Of a stretch of DNA of 64,000 bases, positions 3,162 to 40,530 are shown in pieces. The notes beneath the pieces were generated by a model. It saw nothing but the letters and a program-made list of their open reading frames with translations, was not told the origin of the DNA and did no database searches. Both the position numbers and the translations under genes were made by a program. The stretch comes from Thermococcus sp. JdFR-02 (GTDB taxonomy: Archaea > Methanobacteriota_B > Thermococci > Thermococcales > Thermococcaceae), in NCBI GenBank assembly GCA_002009975.1, contig MTLP01000012.1:1-64000 (forward strand), in the 5' to 3' direction. How positions within the stretch are numbered: position 1 is the first letter of the stretch; each line of letters starts with the position of its first letter.

Positions 3162-3993
3162 TTTCATCACCCTTTATCCTTAAATAAAGCTCATAAGCCC
3201 TTTTAGCATCTTCCATGGTGACTTTCTCGGGTGCATACTTTGCCTTTTCAAAGAGCCTCGCTAATTCAACATAGGCATCGTGTTTGTATTTTACATGCTG
3301 GGCATGCTCCCAGTGAGTCCAGCTTTCCTTATACGGAATTCCCAAAACCTCAAGCCACAGAATAGCATTTTTATAAAGTTTGACCACTATATCCCTTGGA
3401 TCTCCAATAAATTTAATCCCTTCTTCTTGAAGCTTCCTATCAAAGGCTTCAAGCTTTTCTTTTAGTTTCTTCTTTTTCCTTGAAGTCTTAAAGCCAAGGT
3501 AAAATTTCATACTAAAGTAAACAAATAGAACCGTTAGAATCCCAAAGAAAGCATAGAGATAAATGCCTGGGTTTAAACTTCTAGGATTTCCGGGTTCTCC
3601 CATTGATTGATTATAGTAGGTAACATGGTACGTTTGATTAATCCATGTTCTGTTAAACACGGTAGTCATGTTAAGTTCAGGAAGAGGAGCATTTAAAATG
3701 TATTTGATGAGAGGAATGGAAAGTATAAAAACTCCAAGGAGCATTATAAGAATTCCTCTAAGGTCTACTCCCTGACGATTCTTTCTTTTTCTAGCTAAAA
3801 AATCCTCTCCTTGGATCAAAACTATTTGTATTAGCAAAAGACCTGCAACAATAACAAGAATTCCAAAGAAAAAACCGATCCAATGATACTGTTGAGAACC
3901 CTTGGGAGAACTGAGTATTTTTGCTTGAGAATTACTTATGAGCGAAATCAAAAATATTAACGCCATGAACGGAAATATCCATCGTCGCTTCAT
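3148..3993 (-). CDS. DUF4129 domain membrane protein
   Basis: About 281 residues, first gene of the operon. It has an N-terminal hydrophobic segment (possible signal anchor), further helices near residues 38-60 and 80-100, an external loop with several N-glycosylation sequons, another helix near 150-170 and a basic linker. The cytoplasmic C-terminal domain of about 90 residues ends in the pattern typical of DUF4129 (YKNAILWLEVLGIPY, then TxxEHA and ARLFEKAKY). DUF4129 proteins accompany MoxR/DUF58 and transglutaminase-like proteins. No strong ribosome-binding site precedes the ATG; the promoter lies so close that the message may be nearly leaderless. Confidence 0.8.
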   Translation of the reverse strand: MKRRWIFPFMALIFLISLISNSQAKILSSPKGSQQYHWIGFFFGILVIVAGLLLIQIVLIQGEDFLARKRKNRQGVDLRGILIMLLGVFILSIPLIKYILNAPLPELNMTTVFNRTWINQTYHVTYYNQSMGEPGNPRSLNPGIYLYAFFGILTVLFVYFSMKFYLGFKTSRKKKKLKEKLEAFDRKLQEEGIKFIGDPRDIVVKLYKNAILWLEVLGIPYKESWTHWEHAQHVKYKHDAYVELARLFEKAKYAPEKVTMEDAKRAYELYLRIKGDENEDK

Positions 3994-4021
3994 TTTAATC
4001 AATGATGGTATTGTTAGTTAT

Positions 4022-4067
4022 CTTTAAAAGTTTTACTTCACTGTAAACCCTCAGGGAAGTTTATAAG
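4022..4067. promoter_or_regulatory. Divergent promoter pair between the DUF4129 operon and DUF2118
   Basis: Two archaeal TATA-like elements lie back to back. CTTTAAAAG at 4022-4030 (with a BRE-like gtaaaa read on the minus strand next to it) is placed to start minus-strand transcription just upstream of 3993. GTTTATAAG at 4059-4067 would start plus-strand transcription around 4088-4092. This is assigned by motif and spacing only. Confidence 0.5.
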
Positions 4068-4098
4068 TTAGGAGATTAACCAAAATAGGGGGATGAAG

Positions 4099-4596
4099 AT
4101 GGAGAGAATACCTCGATTGTATGTTGAAGCGGATTATGAAGAGTGCTTTGATAAAAATGGAATTGCAAAAAAGGAATGCATTGTAATTCAAGATAATGTT
4201 GAAGTTAGATTAGGAAAGGGAGAAAAATTGCCAGATTTTATAGATAGAAAAAGAGCAAAATTCTTAGTAAAGGAGGTTTATGACAGATTCCACTTCTATG
4301 TTGATAAATATGAGAACAAAGTTAAGTGCGATATGATAATTGTTTTACCAGATAGGAGAACAGAGATAAGGCTTTACAAAGGGGACGAGCTAATGCTCCT
4401 ACCAGTAGAAGGATTTGTCTCTACGTTAATAGCTAAAGTTGGAAATAGAGTAAGAAAAAGCGATGCTTTTGCCGCAATAACAACTAAAAAGGGAGAAGTC
4501 CATTATCTAAAACCGCCAAAGAATGGTGTAGTTGTCTATATAGATGAGTTCACAAACAGACCTCATTACATATACTACATCCTTCCGGAGGATTAA
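4099..4596 (+). CDS. DUF2118 family protein
   Basis: 165 residues, matching the archaeal DUF2118 family in length and pattern: an N-terminal region with two Cys (DYEECF, KKECIV), a central beta domain, and a C-terminal biotinyl/lipoyl-like half barrel with KVGNRVRKSDAFAAITTKKG. No biotinylated Lys motif is evident, so it probably does not carry a cofactor. Function unknown. The ATG at 4099 is favoured because the AGGGGGATGA ribosome-binding site is correctly spaced from it; the ATG at 4093 is too close. Its 3' end overlaps the convergent small gene by 4 bases. Confidence 0.85.
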   Translation: MERIPRLYVEADYEECFDKNGIAKKECIVIQDNVEVRLGKGEKLPDFIDRKRAKFLVKEVYDRFHFYVDKYENKVKCDMIIVLPDRRTEIRLYKGDELMLLPVEGFVSTLIAKVGNRVRKSDAFAAITTKKGEVHYLKPPKNGVVVYIDEFTNRPHYIYYILPED

Positions 4597-4892
4597 TCTT
4601 CCTTTTTAATCCCTTGAACTATTGCTTTTATGTTTTCTCTAATTCTTAGCTTTAATGTGTTCATGTTGTCTCTCCCTTGTATTGTTCTTGTGTTGTTAGC
4701 ACTTGTCAATATCACGGACCATAAGTACAAACCGTGTTTTTTCTCCTCACTCTGAAACATTGCAAGAAACTTCTCTCCATCTACATCAACTTCCAAAATC
4801 TCTATATCTCTCTTACCGAGCCTTGTAGAGTATATTTCCCTTACATTCATCTCTTTAAACTCTTCTTTAAGTATGTCGGCAAAATATCCCAT
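4593..4892 (-). CDS. Hypothetical small protein
   Basis: 99 residues, soluble, with an alpha/beta pattern (a short helix, then strands around DIEILEVDVDGEKFLAMFQ). It is preceded by a good GGAGGGTG ribosome-binding site, which supports a real gene. It converges with the DUF2118 gene (4-base overlap). I recognise no family or function. Confidence 0.65.
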   Translation of the reverse strand: MGYFADILKEEFKEMNVREIYSTRLGKRDIEILEVDVDGEKFLAMFQSEEKKHGLYLWSVILTSANNTRTIQGRDNMNTLKLRIRENIKAIVQGIKKED

Positions 4893-5023
4893 AATACACC
4901 CTCCAGTGTTAATAACCCCATCCTCCTATATATGCCTTTCCCAGATTTGTGCAATATTGACCAAAAGCGTTATAAACGTATAGTCACGAGTAGCTTTGAA
5001 TACTATCAAATGTGGTGGAAGAA

Positions 5024-5500
5024 ATGAAAATTGAAAAAGGAGATTTCGTGGTTTTTAACTACATAGGAAAATTTGAGAATGGAGAGGTTTTTGACACAAG
5101 TTATGAGGATATTGCCAAAGAAGCTGGCATTTATCTTGAAGACAGAACTTATGGTCCTATTGGTGCTAATGTTGGGGTTGGGGAACTAATTCCCGGTTTA
5201 GATGAAGCCCTGGTGGGTATGGAGATTGGGGAAAAGAAAACGATAACGGTTCCCCCAGAATTAGGTTATGGATTGCCAAGAGACGACTTAATAGTAGACG
5301 TTCCATTAAAAGATTTTGAAAGCATTGGTCTAACTCCCGAAATTGGAATGTACGTTATGACTGATAGCGGAATAGCAAAAATAAAGGAAATCAAAGAAGA
5401 TCTCGTTTCATTGGATTTTAACCATCCATTAGCTGGAAAGACTCTTATATTCGAAGTTGAGATTGTTGATGTTCAAAAGGGTGAAGAAGCTGAGGAATGA
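5024..5500 (+). CDS. FKBP-type peptidyl-prolyl cis-trans isomerase (short, SlyD-like)
   Basis: 158 residues. The FKBP core is split by the insert-in-flap domain typical of archaeal short FKBPs: N-terminal half with FNYIGKFENGEVFDTSYE, then GELIPGLDEALVGMEIGEKK, then the flap insertion with the LGYG element, and a C-terminal strand FEVEIVDV. It catalyses prolyl isomerisation and has chaperone activity in the cytoplasm. The ATG at 5024 is chosen because GGTGG at 5014-5018 is a well-placed ribosome-binding site; the upstream in-frame GTG codons lie inside it. Single gene with its own upstream region. Confidence 0.92.
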   Translation: MKIEKGDFVVFNYIGKFENGEVFDTSYEDIAKEAGIYLEDRTYGPIGANVGVGELIPGLDEALVGMEIGEKKTITVPPELGYGLPRDDLIVDVPLKDFESIGLTPEIGMYVMTDSGIAKIKEIKEDLVSLDFNHPLAGKTLIFEVEIVDVQKGEEAEE

Positions 5501-5509
5501 ACTTTCTTT

Positions 5510-32580: not shown

Positions 32581-32594
32581 ATTAGGTGAGGGAA

Positions 32595-33173
32595 ATGACC
32601 AAAAAAGTTAGGGTGATTACAGATCCCAAGGTTATAAAACTTATGCTTGAAGACACGAGGAGACAGATACTTCAACTTTTAAGAAATAAGGAGATGACAA
32701 TCTCCCAACTTTCCGAAATCCTTGGAAAAACGCCACAAACAATCTACCATCACATTGAAAAGCTCAAAGAAGCTGGACTTGTTGAGGTAAAGAGAACAGA
32801 GATGAAGGGGAATTTAGTTGAAAAATACTATGGGAGAACTGCAGACGCCTTTTATATTAACATGTATCTTGGAGATGAAGAGTTAAGATACTTTGCGAGA
32901 TCAAGGTTAAAGACAAAGTTGGATATATTTAAAGCTCTTGGATACTCTTTCAACGATGAGGAGCTTTTGGACATAATGGACAAACTTCTCGCAAAGGAGC
33001 ACGAGTATAAAATGGAGATTTCGAAGGAGATAGAAGCAAAGGAAGAATTACTAAAGGACTTCTCAAATGAGGACATAATCCATGCAATAGAATGGTTCTC
33101 AATGGCAAAGTTGGGAAGAGATGACGAAGCTTTAGAGTTATTGAAAAAACTGGGAGAAATACTTAAAAAGTAG
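32595..33173 (+). CDS. ArsR-like HTH transcriptional regulator
   Basis: 192 residues. Winged HTH at residues 15-75 with DTRRQILQLLRNKEMTISQL, then KTPQTIYHHIEKLKEAGLVEV, followed by a helical C-terminal domain of about 100 residues. It resembles Thermococcales regulators of the ArsR/PadR-like superfamily. The ATG at 32595 follows GGTGAG. It starts an operon with a DUF211 gene and a second HTH gene. Confidence 0.85.
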   Translation: MTKKVRVITDPKVIKLMLEDTRRQILQLLRNKEMTISQLSEILGKTPQTIYHHIEKLKEAGLVEVKRTEMKGNLVEKYYGRTADAFYINMYLGDEELRYFARSRLKTKLDIFKALGYSFNDEELLDIMDKLLAKEHEYKMEISKEIEAKEELLKDFSNEDIIHAIEWFSMAKLGRDDEALELLKKLGEILKK

Positions 33174-33201
33174 GTTTCCTATGGGCTAAGGGGAAGTAAA
33201 G

Positions 33202-33507
33202 ATGGCAAAAGGTATTAGGTTGTTAGTGTTGGATGTCCTTAAGCCTCATCAACCTATGGTAACCGAACTTGCTTTAGGTTTGAGCGAGTTGAAAGGTGTA
33301 GATGGAGTTAACATAACTTTAGTTGAGATTGATAAAGAGACTGAGAACGTAAAAATAACGATTGTCGGAGATAACTTGGACTATGAGGAAATTGTGAGAA
33401 CGATTGAAGAGTTTGGTGGGGTAGTGCACAGCATAGACATGGTAGCCGCTGGAAAGAAGATCATTGAAGAAAGTGAGACCCCGCAAGACAAATTAGAAGA
33501 GTTTTAG
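33202..33507 (+). CDS. DUF211 family protein
   Basis: 101 residues, ferredoxin-like fold expected. KGIRLLVLDVLKPHQPMV at the N-terminus, GVDGVNITLVEIDKETENVKIT, and GGVVHSIDMVAAGKK are conserved DUF211 segments. Known archaeal members are small oligomeric proteins of unknown role with possible metal or ligand binding. Between two HTH regulator genes, with short gaps, so probably a ligand-sensing partner; this is inference. Confidence 0.88.
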   Translation: MAKGIRLLVLDVLKPHQPMVTELALGLSELKGVDGVNITLVEIDKETENVKITIVGDNLDYEEIVRTIEEFGGVVHSIDMVAAGKKIIEESETPQDKLEEF

Positions 33508-33516
33508 TGAGCGATT

Positions 33517-34074
33517 ATGAAAGAGGTTATAATAGTAACAGATCCCAAAAAAGTTAGGGCACTTGCTGATCCTACCCGTTTTAAAATTTTAGAACTTTTA
33601 AGAATGCATCCGATGAGCATAAACGAACTTAGTCAGCTCTTAAATAAAGATAGATCCACAGTTTACAGACATGTGAAAACTTTAGAAAACTCTGGCTTCA
33701 TAGAAGAAATTGCCCAAGAGGGGAATGAAAAGATATATGGAAGAAAAGCGAGAATATTTTTACTTAAGTTTGAAGCTGATGAGACACTAAAAGAATTCAA
33801 GCAGAGATACATGAAAGTTGAAGCCAAAAGGATTTATGAGATCCTTACAAACTCTAAAATAAATGTAAAAGACAAAGAAACCTTCCTGAGGCTTGTTGAA
33901 GAGATTCTGAGAGATATAGAAGAATTCTCAAGACCAATCTTTAAGAAGATTTCAGAGTCAAACGTTGACATTAAAGAAGTTGAACTTTTGCACCTGCTTA
34001 ATCTACTTGTTCTTCTAAATTCTAATGAGCTGTGTGAAAAAGCCAAAGAATTAAGAGAAATCCTAGAATTCTAG
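33517..34074 (+). CDS. ArsR-like HTH transcriptional regulator, second of the operon
   Basis: 185 residues. The N-terminal TDPKKVRALADPTRFKIL and HTH with NKDRSTVYRHVKTLENSG are a clear winged helix; the C-terminal half is helical and acidic. It is related to the upstream HTH protein (both start V-I-x-D-P-K), suggesting duplication around the DUF211 gene. Its 3' end overlaps the convergent nnr gene by 12 bases. Confidence 0.87.
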   Translation: MKEVIIVTDPKKVRALADPTRFKILELLRMHPMSINELSQLLNKDRSTVYRHVKTLENSGFIEEIAQEGNEKIYGRKARIFLLKFEADETLKEFKQRYMKVEAKRIYEILTNSKINVKDKETFLRLVEEILRDIEEFSRPIFKKISESNVDIKEVELLHLLNLLVLLNSNELCEKAKELREILEF

Positions 34075-35505
34075 GACATGCTTAACGACATATGGTATCT
34101 TTTTTGCAACTTCCAAAGCTGTGAAATTTTCTCCCTTCTCTTCTTTAACCATATCGCCAGCGAGTCCATTTAAGAAAGCACCAACACTTGCGGCTCTTAA
34201 GGGACTGTTTCCTAAGGCTAAGAGAGAAACAATTACTCCAGCTAAAACATCACCAGTTCCCCCTGTGGTCATTCCTCTGTTGCCCGTTTTGTTGTACTTC
34301 CACTCTTCTCCATCGCTTATTATATCATAAGCTCCTTTGAGCAAGATTGTGCCGTTGATTTCTCTCGCCTTCTTGGTGACGAGCTTTGCTTTTTCCTCCA
34401 AGCTCCCCTCAGGCTTTTCACCAAAAAGTATTTTAAATTCCCCAGCATGTGGAGTCAAAACAAAAGTTTTACCCCTTAAAACGCTCAAGTCCTCAGCTAC
34501 GGCTTTTAATCCGTCAGCATCAATGACCATTGGCTTCTTGCAGTGCTTAACGAATTCTCTTACAAATTCTTTGGTCTCCCCACTCAATCCAATTCCCATT
34601 CCAATTGCTACGGCATCAGCCTTTTCTGCTAAAGCCAAGACTTCCTCTAGGAGCTCTTTTGAGAAGTTCTTACCCCTAACGGGTCTCAAAATTAAGTCTG
34701 GGTCGTTTATTCTCCTCGCACTTTCTTCAGGCATTGCTAGATAAACAAGATCAACTAAATAGGAAGCAGCTTTTGAAGCTAAATAAGGTGCCCCAAAGTA
34801 GTTCTCGCTTCCTCCGATTATCAAAACTTTGCCATTTTGACCCTTATGCTCTCCCTTTTTCCTTAAAGCAAACTTTGCATCCCCCGGACCGACTAAGTAA
34901 TAGAGCTCCTTTGGATAGCCAATCTTTGCTATTATCCTTTCAAAACCTTCGTATTCCTCTTTGTCCCATTGGAAAGTTACTGCAAAATCGCAATTTACCC
35001 TAACGCTCGAGGGATAGCCGCTCGGCAGATCAACACTAACTATCTTAGCTTTTCCGGCATATTCATTGATTTTCTTAACAGCGCTCCTTATTGGCTCTCT
35101 CGGCTCTCCCTTAGTTCCCGCGCCGAGTAAAGCATCAACTATAACATCAAAACCTTTCAAATCCAGAGCTTTTATTTGACTTGAGTCTTTAAGAACTTTA
35201 ATCTTTACAAAATCGAGCTTCTTGAGAATTTCCCAGTTATGCTTTGCCTCCTCACTTCTGATTTTCACCTCATCGCCGACTAAAAAGAGGGTCACATCGT
35301 TTTCAAAGCTCAAGTGCCTCGCTATTACAAAGCCGTCTCCGCCGTTGTTGCCTGTTCCGCAGAAAATCACCACTTTTAAGTTTTTTCCAAACTTCTCCTC
35401 AATTATCCTCGCCACACCCGCACCGGCATTTTCCATCAATTGAAAAGGTGAAATACTAAGCCACTTAGCGTTTATATCCCAAATGTAAACATCCTCAATT
35501 TTCAT
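34063..35505 (-). CDS. nnr: Bifunctional NAD(P)H-hydrate repair enzyme Nnr
   Basis: 480 residues with two fused domains. The N-terminal YjeF epimerase half (1-215) has CGTGNNGGDGFVIARHL and VDALLGAGTKGEPREP. The C-terminal ribokinase-like ADP/ATP-dependent dehydratase half has LTPHAGEFKILFG and the catalytic Asp in TTGGTGDVLAGVI. Together they epimerise and dehydrate damaged NADHX/NADPHX. The ATG at 35505 follows GGTGGTG; the longer in-frame reading is not needed. Confidence 0.95.
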   Translation of the reverse strand: MKIEDVYIWDINAKWLSISPFQLMENAGAGVARIIEEKFGKNLKVVIFCGTGNNGGDGFVIARHLSFENDVTLFLVGDEVKIRSEEAKHNWEILKKLDFVKIKVLKDSSQIKALDLKGFDVIVDALLGAGTKGEPREPIRSAVKKINEYAGKAKIVSVDLPSGYPSSVRVNCDFAVTFQWDKEEYEGFERIIAKIGYPKELYYLVGPGDAKFALRKKGEHKGQNGKVLIIGGSENYFGAPYLASKAASYLVDLVYLAMPEESARRINDPDLILRPVRGKNFSKELLEEVLALAEKADAVAIGMGIGLSGETKEFVREFVKHCKKPMVIDADGLKAVAEDLSVLRGKTFVLTPHAGEFKILFGEKPEGSLEEKAKLVTKKAREINGTILLKGAYDIISDGEEWKYNKTGNRGMTTGGTGDVLAGVIVSLLALGNSPLRAASVGAFLNGLAGDMVKEEKGENFTALEVAKKIPYVVKHVLEF

Positions 35506-35562
35506 GAACACCACCGTTAAAAATTTAAAAAAGAAAAGGTTAAAAGATTTAGCCAATGGAAC

Positions 35563-36033
35563 TTAAAGAACAATTCTCTTAAATGATCTGTAGTCCAAAA
35601 ACTTCCCAATAAGTATGAACGCAGAACCCAAGAGAATCATCAGACCAAGCAGGCATAAATTCTTTCGCTTTTTGGAATTATAATTTCGAAAAGTTGCTAC
35701 TGCTGTTAGAAAGCTCAACATTGCTCCAATTCGAAAGTATGCGAATTATATAGTTATTTCGTCTCTGTAGAGAAAGTACACCGCCCTAAATAATGTAGCT
35801 CCTAGACAATAACCCAAGTTCTCCTTTCCTATAATCGAGGCTATTACTATTCCAAAGAAGGTGTTTTAAATATCACCACTTTTTGTCTTTCAGGTCCTTA
35901 GAAAGACCGAGTTCAAGGCAAAGTTATCAACAGTCCCGTCAATATAATATAGTTGAGAACTTTTAAGTTAATGATAAAGTTAGCTAGTCCAAATTACAAG
36001 AAGGAAGAGAAAGTATAGGAAGGCCTTTTTCAT
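35563..36033 (-). pseudogene. Decayed membrane-protein gene
   Basis: An ATG at 36033 preceded by GGTGATG opens a typical signal/anchor sequence (MKKAFLYFLFLLVIWTS) that stops at once. Further on, one continuous frame encodes DGTVDNFALNSVFLRT, stop, KTKSGDI, stop, NTFFGIVIASIIGKENLGYC and onward to YRDEITI, stop, FAYFRIGAMLSFLTAVATF and finally MILLGSAFILIGKFLDYRS to a terminal stop. Three in-frame TAA/TGA codons and at least one frameshift thus disrupt a membrane protein of about 150 residues. It lies directly downstream of the Cys-rich peptide gene cluster. Confidence 0.8.
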
Positions 36034-36039
36034 GTTTCA

Positions 36040-36939
36040 TCACCTAATTAAAGTTAGATTTTGGAAGATTAAAGTATAATTCATGTTTTCCGAAATTATG
36101 GAAAATCTAACGGGTAGTAAGTCTTCTTTCCTTATGAGAAGCATAATAGTAGAGTTGCTTTCAATTGTAGATAATCTATAAAAATCATGATATTCCTCAA
36201 GAGTCAAGTTTACATTCTTGAAATATGAGAAAATGTTTTGGAGATTAATGTCTTCTATGTGCTCACATGACATGATGTTCGTATGGATATCTTTTTTGTC
36301 ACTATTACTCCCATTGTATAGGATAACTGATGTTCCATTACAAGTCAAAATTTCTCCAGAGGGGATATCCTGAATTTTAAAAAGATTTGGCTTCTTAAAA
36401 AGATATAGATAAACACTAGACTCAGTATTGTTTAGAATGGATGTTGTTTCATGTATTATGGCCTTATATCCCTGAGCTTTTTCAAATTTTACAGTCATTT
36501 GAGTAAGGAGTGTTTTGGAGTTTAAACTTGTTTCATGGATAGATATAACTACTACAATAGCCAGCAAAATAACCCCCATAGCATATATTGCAAGAATCTT
36601 TTTAGGCATCTTGATATGCTTAGAGGATGCGTAATAAAGAAACATTACTCCGTTAAAAATTAAAAGCTTTAAAGAGATATCCTTTAGAGGAAAGCCCAAA
36701 TAGTAGTTACGGGTTAACAAGAGAAAAGAGACTAAAATCAGATATAAAGAAAAATTTTCAGGCTTTTGTTTGATCTCACTAAGGGAATTAAAAAACAGAT
36801 GAAGTAACAATAACGCCGTGATTATTCCAAGAGTTAATGAAAACATGAGGTTGAACTTTTCGATTTTCCTAAAATAAGCGTCAATGGAAAAGAGCAAAAA
36901 ACCAAGAATAACCAGAAAACCTCTAACTTCTTTTTTCAT
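36040..36939 (-). CDS. Membrane protein with an external LolA-like domain
   Basis: 299 residues. Four or five membrane helices occupy residues 8-135. The remaining 160 residues are extracytoplasmic and look like a LolA/LppX-type lipid-carrier fold: GYKAIIHETTS, LFKKPNLFKIQDIPSGEILTCNG, TSVILYNGS, and a last RKEDLLPVRFSI. Several N-glycosylation sequons support an external location. It overlaps the small membrane gene upstream by 17 bases and belongs to the Cys-rich peptide operon. Role in export or immunity is only a suggestion. Confidence 0.7.
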   Translation of the reverse strand: MKKEVRGFLVILGFLLFSIDAYFRKIEKFNLMFSLTLGIITALLLLHLFFNSLSEIKQKPENFSLYLILVSFLLLTRNYYLGFPLKDISLKLLIFNGVMFLYYASSKHIKMPKKILAIYAMGVILLAIVVVISIHETSLNSKTLLTQMTVKFEKAQGYKAIIHETTSILNNTESSVYLYLFKKPNLFKIQDIPSGEILTCNGTSVILYNGSNSDKKDIHTNIMSCEHIEDINLQNIFSYFKNVNLTLEEYHDFYRLSTIESNSTIMLLIRKEDLLPVRFSIISENMNYTLIFQNLTLIR

Positions 36940-37123
36940 TTAACCATCTCCTAAACCATACTCGCGGAGGGATTGTTAGGATAGTGATAACAAGTGTTAT
37001 AACAAAAACCATGTAAGCTGGGACATTTAATCTCCCAGATTTCCATAAGTTACCCACTACAATAAAAATAATAAAATAAAGAGGTATTGAACGCCCAATT
37101 TCTTGTTTAACAATTATATCCAT
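36923..37123 (-). CDS. Small membrane protein of the Cys-rich peptide operon
   Basis: 66 residues with two membrane helices (IPLYFIIFIVVGNLW and AYMVFVITLVITILTIP) and a basic tail. The ATG at 37123 is favoured because GGAGGT is 6 bases upstream; the earlier ATG at 37129 is too close. It sits 14 bases after the precursor gene and overlaps the next gene. The size and place would suit an immunity or export helper, but nothing in the sequence proves it. Confidence 0.65.
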   Translation of the reverse strand: MDIIVKQEIGRSIPLYFIIFIVVGNLWKSGRLNVPAYMVFVITLVITILTIPPRVWFRRWLNEKRS

Positions 37124-37136
37124 ACCCATACCTCCA

Positions 37137-37826
37137 TTAAGAGAAATAACACTGCCCCATACAGTATCCTAAATCAGCCCCTAGACATATTGCACACGCT
37201 AAACATCCAACTCCAGTTGCAATACAAGTGGGACAGATATACACTAAGCAATCTAAACAATATCCTGTTGTACATTCCTGAAGCATACACCCTACAACAC
37301 ATTCCCAAAAGCCATCATCACTAGTTACATGAATTTGGCCATTTTCGGCAGTTGCTATTAACTCAATGTTTCCATTCTTATCAAGAGAATAGAACTCTAT
37401 TTTGCCAACACTATCCCCAGATAATGTCATCGTATACTTAACGGGCTTAATTTTGTTTGAAAGATAAACTACTACTGAAGACACTCTTACTCCTTCTTTG
37501 CTTTTCTCATATCCTATGGGAAATACTGCAAATGTTGCACTCTTTCCAGAAGAGGTTGAAATTTTGTAAACTTTTGCATTTTTTATTAACAGCGAAGGAA
37601 GCAAATTTGTATTTGCAATTAGTTTTTTAAGTTCATGTGAGTTAACTGCACTAGAGAGAAGCACATACTTTTGAATTCCAGTGATTTCTTCTAACCTCAG
37701 CTTTTCTTTAGTATATACACAGGTTTTTGGTTTTGCAATTTGCTGTTCTGCTAGTACTGGAGCTGCAATCATCCCCAAAATCAAGACTAAAACAAATAAC
37801 GAACCTAACATCATTTTTCGATTCAT
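37137..37826 (-). CDS. Secreted precursor with 12-Cys C-terminal peptide (halocin C8-like)
   Basis: 229 residues. A Sec-type signal peptide (MNRKMMLGSLFVLVLILGM, cleavage near VLAEQQ) is followed by a domain of about 145 residues with a single Cys. The C-terminal 57 residues (37140-37310) hold 12 Cys, beginning FWECVVGCMLQEC and ending GYCMGQCYFS, mostly spaced CxxC, CxxxC and CxxxxC. The order signal peptide, N-terminal domain, Cys-rich hydrophobic tail parallels the halocin C8 precursor, which yields an immunity protein and a disulfide-rich archaeocin. The homology is by architecture and Cys pattern only. The start at 37826 follows GTGAC; a TATA-like ATATTTAT lies about 45 bases upstream. 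Downstream are two membrane genes. Confidence 0.72.
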   Translation of the reverse strand: MNRKMMLGSLFVLVLILGMIAAPVLAEQQIAKPKTCVYTKEKLRLEEITGIQKYVLLSSAVNSHELKKLIANTNLLPSLLIKNAKVYKISTSSGKSATFAVFPIGYEKSKEGVRVSSVVVYLSNKIKPVKYTMTLSGDSVGKIEFYSLDKNGNIELIATAENGQIHVTSDDGFWECVVGCMLQECTTGYCLDCLVYICPTCIATGVGCLACAICLGADLGYCMGQCYFS

Positions 37827-38672: not shown

Positions 38673-39245
38673 TTACTCTAAAACTTTCAAAGCCCTCTCA
38701 TAATCCGCCCTTGAATAAAGCACAAGATAAACTTCTTTAACACTCTCAGCTTCCCTTGAAAACTCTTCCACAACTTCAATAAAAGTTTTAACAACCTCTT
38801 CCAGTGGACATCCATAGATGCCGGCACTTATGGCTGGAAATGCAATTGAAGAAATGTTTAGCTCTTCAGCTTTTCTTAATGGCCCGATTAACGCTTTTCT
38901 AAGCTTCTCCTTTAAGCTCCCATTCCATTTTCCACCACAATAAGGCCCAACCGTGTGGATAACGTATTTTATTCCAGAGCGCTCCATGTTTAAAGCGGGT
39001 GTAACAACGACTTCACCGTGCTCAATGTAATTTCTCCCAATCTGCTCTCTCATAGCCTCTTTGCTGATTTTGATGTATTCGTAAGGGTCTCCAGCTGCAG
39101 CTTTAGCAATGGCTAAAGCTACTCCTCCACCGTGCTCCAAATATTTGTTTGCCGCATTAACTATCGCCTCCGCTGGAAACCTAGTTATGTCTCCTTGGGC
39201 GAGCTTAAAAGTTAAATTTCTAAAGGTAAGTTCTTTTAAAATCAT
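38673..39245 (-). CDS. Macro domain ADP-ribose-binding protein
   Basis: 190 residues. Macro domain with the N-terminal [34 protein letters not shown]-type loop (key residues N-A-A-N and GGGVA), and the phosphate loop [17 protein letters not shown]. Such domains hydrolyse ADP-ribose-1-phosphate, O-acetyl-ADP-ribose or ADP-ribosylated targets. The start at 39245 follows GAGGTGAG, four bases after the mtaD stop codon, so it is co-transcribed with mtaD. Confidence 0.92.
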   Translation of the reverse strand: [190 protein letters not shown]

Positions 39246-39249
39246 ACTC

Positions 39250-40530
39250 TCACCTCGACAACAAATCTTCTGCAACCTCTTGAGCTTTATCCAAAACCCG
39301 CTCCTCATCAAAGCTCAAAACTTCTCTATCAAGCATCAAAATCTTCCCATCGACTATTGTGGTCTCGACATCGCTTCCATTTGCAGAATAAACGATGTGG
39401 CTTATAACATTGTGAATCGGTCTTAGGTGAGGTTTGTTGAAGTCAATTATAATCAAATCTGCTAAAGCACCTTCTCTTATTACTCCAGCATTCAGCTTTA
39501 GTGCTTTTGCCCCATTTTGAGTTGCCATCTTAAAAACAGTTGAAGCATCGGCTATTGTTGGATCAAGGATGTGCACTTTGTGTAAGAGTGCCGCTAGTTT
39601 CATCTCTTCAAGCATGTCCAAGTTGTTGTTGCTTGCAGTTCCATCAGTTGCTAAAGAAACGTTCGCCCCTTCTTTTAAAAGCTCCCTAAGGGGCATTACT
39701 CCACTCGCAAGCTTCATGTTCGAGGCTGGATTGTGTGCTATTGTTGCACCACTTTTTGCAATGATTTCAATATCCCTTTCGTTCAACCAGACGCCATGTG
39801 CAATAATAACATCATCTTTCAAAAACCCAATCTCATCTAAAAGCTCAACTGGACTTTTTCCATATTGGGCTTTTATGTTCTCCACTTCAGTTTTAGTTTC
39901 ACTAACGTGGATTGTTATCATTTTCTTGTACTTATCTGCTAACTCTCTAACCCTTTTCAAAAACTCTGGAGAGCAAGTGTACGGAGCGTGAGGTCCAAAG
40001 AGGAAGTTAATCCTCTCCAAACCAAGCTTTTCGACAAATTCCATAACTCTAAAGGCTTCCATAATCTCTTTTTCCCCTTTTTCTTTATCTCCGAGTTCGA
40101 TCATCCCGTGACTTAGATAAGCCCTTAAGCCACTCTCTTTTACTGCTTTAGCAGTTTCATCCATGAAGAAGTACATGTCAACAAAAGTTGTTGTTCCAGT
40201 CTTTATCATTTCTAAAGCACCTAAAAGAGAACCCCAATAAACATCACTTGCTTTGAGTTTTGCTTCTCTTGGCCAAATATGCTTTTGAAGCCATTCCATA
40301 AGTTCCAAATCATCTGCAACGCCCCTAAAAAGTGTCATGGCTAAATGGGTGTGTGTATTTATAAAACCAGGAGAAACTATTTTTCCGTTAGCATCAATAA
40401 CAACATCAGCACTCTCCTTCAAACCTTTTCCAATTTTTGTTATTTTGTTTTCTTCAATAAAAAGGTCGGCTTTTATAATTTCCAGATTTTCGCCATAGAT
40501 GAGGGTTCCGTTTTTTATTAAGATGCTCAT
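39250..40530 (-). CDS. mtaD: 5-methylthioadenosine/S-adenosylhomocysteine deaminase (amidohydrolase)
   Basis: 426 residues. Amidohydrolase barrel with metal ligands HTHLAM (about residue 64-66), the substrate-binding GPHAPYTCSPEFL, HVSETKTEVE, IAHGVWL and catalytic Asp in LATDGTASNNNLDM. LFRGVADDLELMEWLQKHIWP is typical of MtaD. It deaminates MTA, SAH and perhaps adenosine; pairing with a macro-domain protein suggests nucleoside/nucleotide metabolism. The start follows GGTGGTGAAAG. Confidence 0.93.
   Translation of the reverse strand: MSILIKNGTLIYGENLEIIKADLFIEENKITKIGKGLKESADVVIDANGKIVSPGFINTHTHLAMTLFRGVADDLELMEWLQKHIWPREAKLKASDVYWGSLLGALEMIKTGTTTFVDMYFFMDETAKAVKESGLRAYLSHGMIELGDKEKGEKEIMEAFRVMEFVEKLGLERINFLFGPHAPYTCSPEFLKRVRELADKYKKMITIHVSETKTEVENIKAQYGKSPVELLDEIGFLKDDVIIAHGVWLNERDIEIIAKSGATIAHNPASNMKLASGVMPLRELLKEGANVSLATDGTASNNNLDMLEEMKLAALLHKVHILDPTIADASTVFKMATQNGAKALKLNAGVIREGALADLIIIDFNKPHLRPIHNVISHIVYSANGSDVETTIVDGKILMLDREVLSFDEERVLDKAQEVAEDLLSR

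What the first reader, a model, noticed from the sequence alone, without database searches (positions are those of the whole stretch)
37137..37826. Halocin C8-like Cys-rich secreted peptide precursor in a hyperthermophile
A signal peptide, a domain of about 145 residues with one Cys, and a 57-residue tail with 12 Cys repeats the halocin C8 precursor plan (immunity part plus disulfide-rich archaeocin). Few antimicrobial peptides are known from Thermococcales, and a 12-Cys peptide would be exceptionally heat-stable. The gene heads a small operon with membrane proteins and decayed genes, typical of an accessory locus.
Basis: partly seen in the sequence, partly recalled or inferred. Interest (0 to 1): 0.85.

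Follow-up and report, generated by a model that had tools for sequence, protein, structure and literature searches.

The report
Heat-loving archaeon's probable antimicrobial peptide gene
This gene most likely makes an exported precursor that releases a small 12-cysteine antimicrobial peptide, with its own protection gene right behind it, and it belongs to a large family in Thermococcales where different peptide-plus-protection cassettes are swapped onto common carrier proteins; no activity has been tested.

Summary
In detail: 229 aa, signal peptide, a ~143-residue domain with one Cys, and a 60-residue tail with 12 Cys. It heads a three-gene operon with a decayed fourth gene behind it.

"Halocin C8-like" holds for the plan, not for homology: the halocin C8 model TIGR04449 matches nowhere in this genome, and tail profiles do not align. 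The archaeocin reading became stronger by another route.

The tail belongs to a family seen in other Thermococcales on a different exported N-terminal "chassis" (type C). That chassis elsewhere carries tails that pass the TIGR04449 cut-off. I collected 56 precursors with 14 tail types.

The gene directly downstream (66 aa, two predicted membrane helices) is homologous to the gene directly downstream of the same tail on the other chassis: 6 of 6 intact cases, plus decayed ones. Across the family, same-tail pairs share a downstream gene in 91/124 cases against 62/1416 for different tails (0 of 5000 permutations reached this). Orphan copies of the small gene occur. This is the signature of a peptide/immunity cassette, and it points to the small protein, rather than the N-terminal domain, as the immunity factor.

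Killing, cleavage and disulfides are inferred, not shown.

The parts
37749..37826 (-). signal peptide of the precursor (residues 1-26)
   Evidence: sequence and hydropathy; cleavage after AxA inferred
37320..37748 (-). N-terminal pro-domain ('chassis', residues 27-169, one Cys)
   Evidence: remote similarity to the type B chassis (hhalign 94% with signal peptide, 27% without) and to G088/G090/G091/G084/G079 proteins (24-28% identity)
37140..37319 (-). C-terminal 12-Cys tail (residues 170-229), predicted mature peptide
   Evidence: homologous to tails in G055, G064, G059, G061, G048 and G097; 12 Cys in the same order in G097
36923..37129 (-). 66-aa (start 37123) or 68-aa small membrane protein, two predicted TM helices, basic C-terminus: predicted cognate immunity protein
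   Evidence: homologues directly downstream of every intact tail of this type in Thermococcales
36040..36939 (-). 299-aa membrane protein: N-terminal part resembles the ~106-aa membrane gene that follows the immunity gene elsewhere (weak, hhalign 30%); C-terminal part soluble, LolA-like by eye only; accessory role
   Evidence: 34% identity to a frameshifted homologue behind the orphan immunity gene of G035
35563..36033 (-). decayed fourth membrane-protein gene of the operon
   Evidence: ATG at 36033 followed by an early stop; only a 52-aa open piece at 35563-35721 remains

Best explanation
A three-gene archaeocin operon. The precursor is exported by the Sec pathway (signal peptide: shown by sequence; export inferred). 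Its N-terminal domain acts as a carrier and folding aid that keeps the tail inert (inferred). Outside the cell, or at its surface, a protease cuts near the conserved junction D-G-[FY]-W-x-C and frees a peptide of about 58-60 residues held by up to six disulfides (inferred). The peptide is hydrophobic and acidic (no Lys or Arg, 6 Asp/Glu) and probably acts on the membrane or a membrane target of closely related archaea (inferred). The producer protects itself with the 66-aa membrane protein encoded next (linkage shown, function inferred); the 299-aa third protein is accessory. Peptide and immunity gene form a cassette that moves between different chassis proteins (shown by comparison).
For: Signal peptide and 12-Cys tail. 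The tail is homologous to tails on the unrelated type C chassis (E 8e-8, 2e-6 and 1.5e-5 with the single protein; 16 invariant columns, 36-44% identity), and type C elsewhere carries tails over the TIGR04449 cut-off, up to 48.3 bits. The same small membrane gene lies directly downstream in all 6 intact cases (window, G055, G064, G059, G061, G048) and beside decayed tails in G038, G070 and G060. 56 precursors, 14 tail types; same-tail pairs share a downstream gene 91/124 against 62/1416, and 37/51 against 24/445 when chassis identity is held at 60-80%; 0 of 5000 permutations reached this. Immunity homologues without an intact precursor of this tail type nearby in G060, G049, G067, G065 and G035, as expected for resistance kept without the weapon. 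Decayed precursors are common. Haloarchaeal halocin C8-like genes also have a 68-aa hydrophobic protein behind them.
Against: No activity, processing or expression data. No curated family names the tail, the immunity protein or the chassis. No protease or dedicated exporter gene in the operon. The AlphaFold2 model of the precursor is unusable (mean pLDDT 42.8), and a relative's model is passable only for a helical tail at pLDDT about 65-76, with no fold match. The linkage statistics would also fit a peptide signal with its receptor.
Confidence: 0.75

Rival explanations
1. A secreted peptide signal with its cognate membrane receptor (kin recognition or quorum sensing): the tail is the ligand and the small membrane protein senses it, so the two co-vary.
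For: Tail and membrane gene travel together; high diversity of tails; VARTIG modules in Thermococcales have been discussed as self/non-self systems (PMC8416519).
Against: A 66-aa two-helix protein has no signalling domain; homologous chassis carry halocin C8-domain tails; copies of the membrane gene without the peptide, and decayed precursors beside intact membrane genes, fit immunity better than a receptor without its ligand.
Confidence: 0.12
2. A cell-surface Cys-rich protein (metal-binding or structural) whose small membrane partner anchors it; no release of the tail.
For: Signal peptide and hydrophobic tail; Thermococcales use many disulfides (general knowledge); no protease in the operon.
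Against: At least 14 Cys-rich tail types on few chassis, patchy distribution (9 of 115 genomes for this tail) and frequent decay do not fit a structural role; no match to known metal-binding families.
Confidence: 0.07
3. A true halocin C8 family member with built-in immunity in the N-terminal domain.
For: Same precursor plan; halocin C8 is reported to release its C-terminal fragment by N-terminal cleavage and to have production and immunity directed by a single gene (PMC12893001 citing Sun 2005).
Against: TIGR04449 negative in this genome; tail profiles do not align; N-terminal domain shows no similarity to haloarchaeal precursors (hhalign 0.1%); chassis constant while tails vary, with tail-specific small genes.
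Confidence: 0.04

Closest known systems
Halocin C8 (HalC8/ProC8; NCBIfam TIGR04449 halocin_C8_dom)
   Same: Exported precursor with a large N-terminal part and a Cys-rich C-terminal peptide; small hydrophobic protein gene directly downstream in H. salinarum 91-R6 and Hfx. larsenii.
   Different: Sec rather than twin-arginine-like signal by eye; tail 60 aa with 12 Cys against ~76 aa with 10 Cys (halocin figures from memory); no TIGR04449 match; N-terminal domain not detectably homologous.
Thermococcales precursors with TIGR04449-type tails (L032-L038, chassis types B and C)
   Same: Same order of Archaea; type C chassis shared with window-type tails; small membrane genes downstream; type B loci share flanking genes with the window locus.
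   Different: Different tail family and different downstream membrane genes.
Polymorphic toxin systems, and the archaeal antimicrobial peptide survey of Makarova et al. 2019 (doi 10.1128/mBio.00715-19; not held here, known from memory)
   Same: Constant delivery part, variable C-terminal effector, adjacent immunity gene, orphan immunity genes; that survey is remembered as having widened the halocin C8 family across archaea.
   Different: The effectors here are small disulfide-rich peptides, not enzyme domains; whether the 12-Cys tail or type C chassis appear in that survey could not be checked.
VARTIG modules of Thermococcales (PMC8416519)
   Same: Hypervariable secreted proteins followed by variable membrane-protein genes.
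   Different: VARTIG is built on large Ig-domain proteins; no Ig-domain match was found in the proteins scanned here.

Membership tests
Halocin C8 family (TIGR04449) | C-terminal domain matches TIGR04449 at or above 24 bits | tested here: not met
   No match in the protein or in the whole genome at E<=10; positive controls in six Thermococcales genomes and one control genome over the cut-off
Halocin C8 family (TIGR04449) | Exported precursor with N-terminal part and Cys-rich C-terminal peptide | tested here: met
Halocin C8 family (TIGR04449) | N-terminal domain homologous to the halocin C8 precursor's N-terminal (immunity) domain | tested here: not met
   hhalign of window against three haloarchaeal precursors: probability 0.1%; a distant link cannot be excluded with so few sequences
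Halocin C8 family (TIGR04449) | Release of the C-terminal peptide and growth inhibition of relatives | not testable with these tools
   Needs mass spectrometry and inhibition tests
Peptide/immunity cassette of a polymorphic archaeocin family | Same effector tail on different N-terminal carriers | tested here: met
   Window chassis (type A) against type C in G055, G064, G059, G061, G048, and a third chassis in G097
Peptide/immunity cassette of a polymorphic archaeocin family | Tail-specific gene next door, co-varying with the tail and not with the carrier | tested here: met
   91/124 against 62/1416 pairs; 0 of 5000 permutations
Peptide/immunity cassette of a polymorphic archaeocin family | Immunity gene also found without the effector | tested here: met
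   G060, G049, G067, G065, G035
Peptide/immunity cassette of a polymorphic archaeocin family | Small membrane protein protects against the peptide | not testable with these tools
   Needs deletion and resistance tests

The most novel reading that the evidence does not exclude
Thermococcales carry a polymorphic archaeocin system: a few exported carrier proteins onto which at least 14 types of disulfide-rich peptide, many with their own small membrane immunity gene, are swapped by recombination; the window carries a 12-Cys class that is not halocin C8 and that also occurs outside the family Thermococcaceae on a third carrier.
Probability: 0.6. Interest if true: 0.78.

Novelty: new variant of a known kind. 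Interest (0 to 1): 0.62.

Why it matters
Tested archaeocins come from halophiles and Sulfolobales; none is described for Thermococcales in the papers I could read. A swappable peptide/immunity cassette makes 'how do hyperthermophilic archaea fight, and how do they protect themselves' directly testable, by giving a named peptide and a named protector gene. It also questions, for this group, the one-gene production-plus-immunity model of halocin C8. Peptides with up to six disulfides that work near the boiling point would be unusually robust scaffolds.

Tried and rejected
Single-protein scans of viral contigs and genome contigs found nothing. Profile scans of viral contigs with the type C precursors and the immunity protein found nothing, so no sign of a virus origin. 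Type B precursors against plasmids: no match. The many hits at query 114-155 in Thermococcus are an unrelated ~130-aa membrane-anchored protein. Homology of the window's N-terminal domain to the haloarchaeal precursors: not shown. Homology of the third gene's C-terminal half to the LolA-like proteins behind type B precursors: not shown. Structure: single-sequence AlphaFold2 is unusable; a type C relative folds only in its tail and Foldseek against PDB gave nothing with E<=0.001. Makarova 2019 is not held. Bacterial-type promoter scan is uninformative in an archaeon.

Full report
OBSERVATION. The ORF at 37137-37826 (minus) is 229 aa with a Sec-type signal peptide, a domain of ~143 residues with a single Cys, and a 60-residue tail with 12 Cys. 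The window's background Cys fraction is 0.63%, so 12 Cys in 57 residues is far from chance. The gene heads an operon: 8 bases after its stop comes a 66-68-aa membrane protein, whose end overlaps a 299-aa membrane protein by 17 bases; behind that lies a decayed membrane gene.

KNOWN FAMILIES. NCBIfam, Pfam and PDB sequence searches give no significant match for the precursor; Pfam and NCBIfam give none above cut-off for its two partners. The halocin C8 model TIGR04449 does not match this genome at all, but it does match proteins in six of 94 Thermococcales genomes above its cut-off. So halocin C8-type tails do exist in Thermococcales; this one is not one of them. The tail profiles do not align.

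RELATIVES. A search of 94 genomes with the single protein found two kinds of relatives. Full-length relatives at 24-28% identity occur in G088, G090, G091, G084 and G079, with other Cys-rich tails. Tail-only relatives occur in G055, G064 and G059, on a different N-terminal domain ('type C'). That type C chassis also carries the halocin C8-type tails. Profile searches then showed type C in 29 of 94 genomes, about 50 copies, many decayed, and type A/B relatives in a further set. In total 56 precursors with an adequate downstream stretch were collected; their tails fall into 14 clusters. The window tail cluster has six intact Thermococcales members, five on type C and the window on type A. A seventh intact tail, with its 12 Cys in the same order (spacings 3,4,6,2,3,2,5,2,2,7,3 against 3,4,4,2,4,2,6,2,2,7,3, read from the sequences), lies on a third kind of N-terminal domain in G097, a class-mate from another family.

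THE NEIGHBOUR GENE. The small membrane protein next to the window gene is homologous to the gene directly behind the same tail in G055, G064, G059, G061 and G048 (about 33-37% identity to the window copy, 17 invariant columns in the first four). It also sits beside decayed copies of this tail in G038, G070 and G060. It occurs without an intact tail of this type nearby in G060, G049, G067, G065 and G035. In G077 a close copy (61% identity) follows a decayed type A precursor.

TEST OF LINKAGE. For all pairs of the 56 precursors, I asked whether tails are alike and whether any gene within 700 bases downstream is alike (blastp E<1e-4). Same-tail pairs share a downstream gene in 91 of 124 cases, different-tail pairs in 62 of 1416. 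With chassis identity held between 60 and 80% the figures are 37 of 51 and 24 of 445. Shuffling downstream sets within chassis type 5000 times gave a mean of 25.6 and a maximum of 44 shared pairs. Pairs are not independent, so this is evidence of linkage, not an exact probability. The downstream gene follows the tail, not the chassis.

POSITION. The window locus lies between an NnrD-like gene set (34063-35556 and the genes at 32586-34074) and an SAH-deaminase-like gene (39250-40530). Type B precursors, most with halocin C8-type tails, sit beside the same neighbours in other genomes. Together with a remote profile match between window and type B precursors (94% with the signal peptide, but only 27% without it), this suggests types A and B are diverged versions of one locus. 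The sequence evidence alone is weak.

MECHANISM. Shown: signal peptide, tail family, tail/neighbour cassette, exchange between chassis, orphan neighbours. Inferred: export, oxidation, cleavage at the D-G-[FY]-W-x-C junction, killing of related archaea, and protection by the 66-aa protein, which has two predicted membrane helices and a basic C-terminus. The tail has no Lys or Arg and six acidic residues. In a type C relative, AlphaFold2 gave a helical tail at pLDDT about 65-76; the rest is unreliable.

OWN GENOME. A second locus, G000:C35 (L149), holds an intact 298-aa precursor with another Cys-rich tail, a decayed precursor, and small membrane genes, so this strain probably carries more than one such weapon.

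LITERATURE. Halocin C8 is described as releasing a C-terminal fragment after N-terminal cleavage with an unidentified protease, and as a single gene giving production and immunity (PMC12893001 and its reference to Sun 2005). Archaeocins described so far are halocins and sulfolobicins (PMC10105419). VARTIG modules and other variable secreted Thermococcus proteins have been proposed as conflict systems but are different proteins (PMC8416519, PMC4158269). The key survey, Makarova et al. 2019, could not be read, so some of this family may already be listed there; novelty is therefore set at 'new variant of a known kind'.

VERDICT. A sound observation; probably an archaeocin operon, not a halocin C8 member, with the immunity function most likely in the neighbouring gene.

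Noticed in passing
L149 (G000:C35) 4611-5507, 1756-2079, 4261-4629, 3923-4255: Second archaeocin-like locus in the window's own genome: intact 298-aa precursor with a 12-Cys tail, a decayed precursor, and small membrane genes downstream.
   Followed up: partly
L032-L038 (Thermococcales genomes): True halocin C8-domain (TIGR04449) proteins occur in Thermococcales on chassis types B and C, in six genomes over the curated cut-off.
   Followed up: yes
L157:8171-9298, L158:4139-5230, L171:3536-4624, L172:3924-5024, L174:4097-5197, L175:4051-5136, L177:4352-5437, L181:3366-4421, L188:3694-4725, L051:1851-2849: A recurring ~120-residue, 16-Cys tail on type C chassis, conserved in ten genomes; unusually large for this kind of peptide.
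   Followed up: no
L043:7485-8267 (G088): A type A precursor interrupted by a TAG stop; pseudogene or sequencing error.
   Followed up: no
window 38673-39311: Macrodomain-like (ADP-ribose binding) ORF next to the locus, overlapping the end of the neighbouring SAH-deaminase-like ORF; identified by eye only.
   Followed up: no
L190 3304-3510 and L191 3299-3505 (haloarchaeal plasmids): Halocin C8-like genes are followed by a conserved 68-aa hydrophobic protein that could be a separate immunity factor there too.
   Followed up: partly
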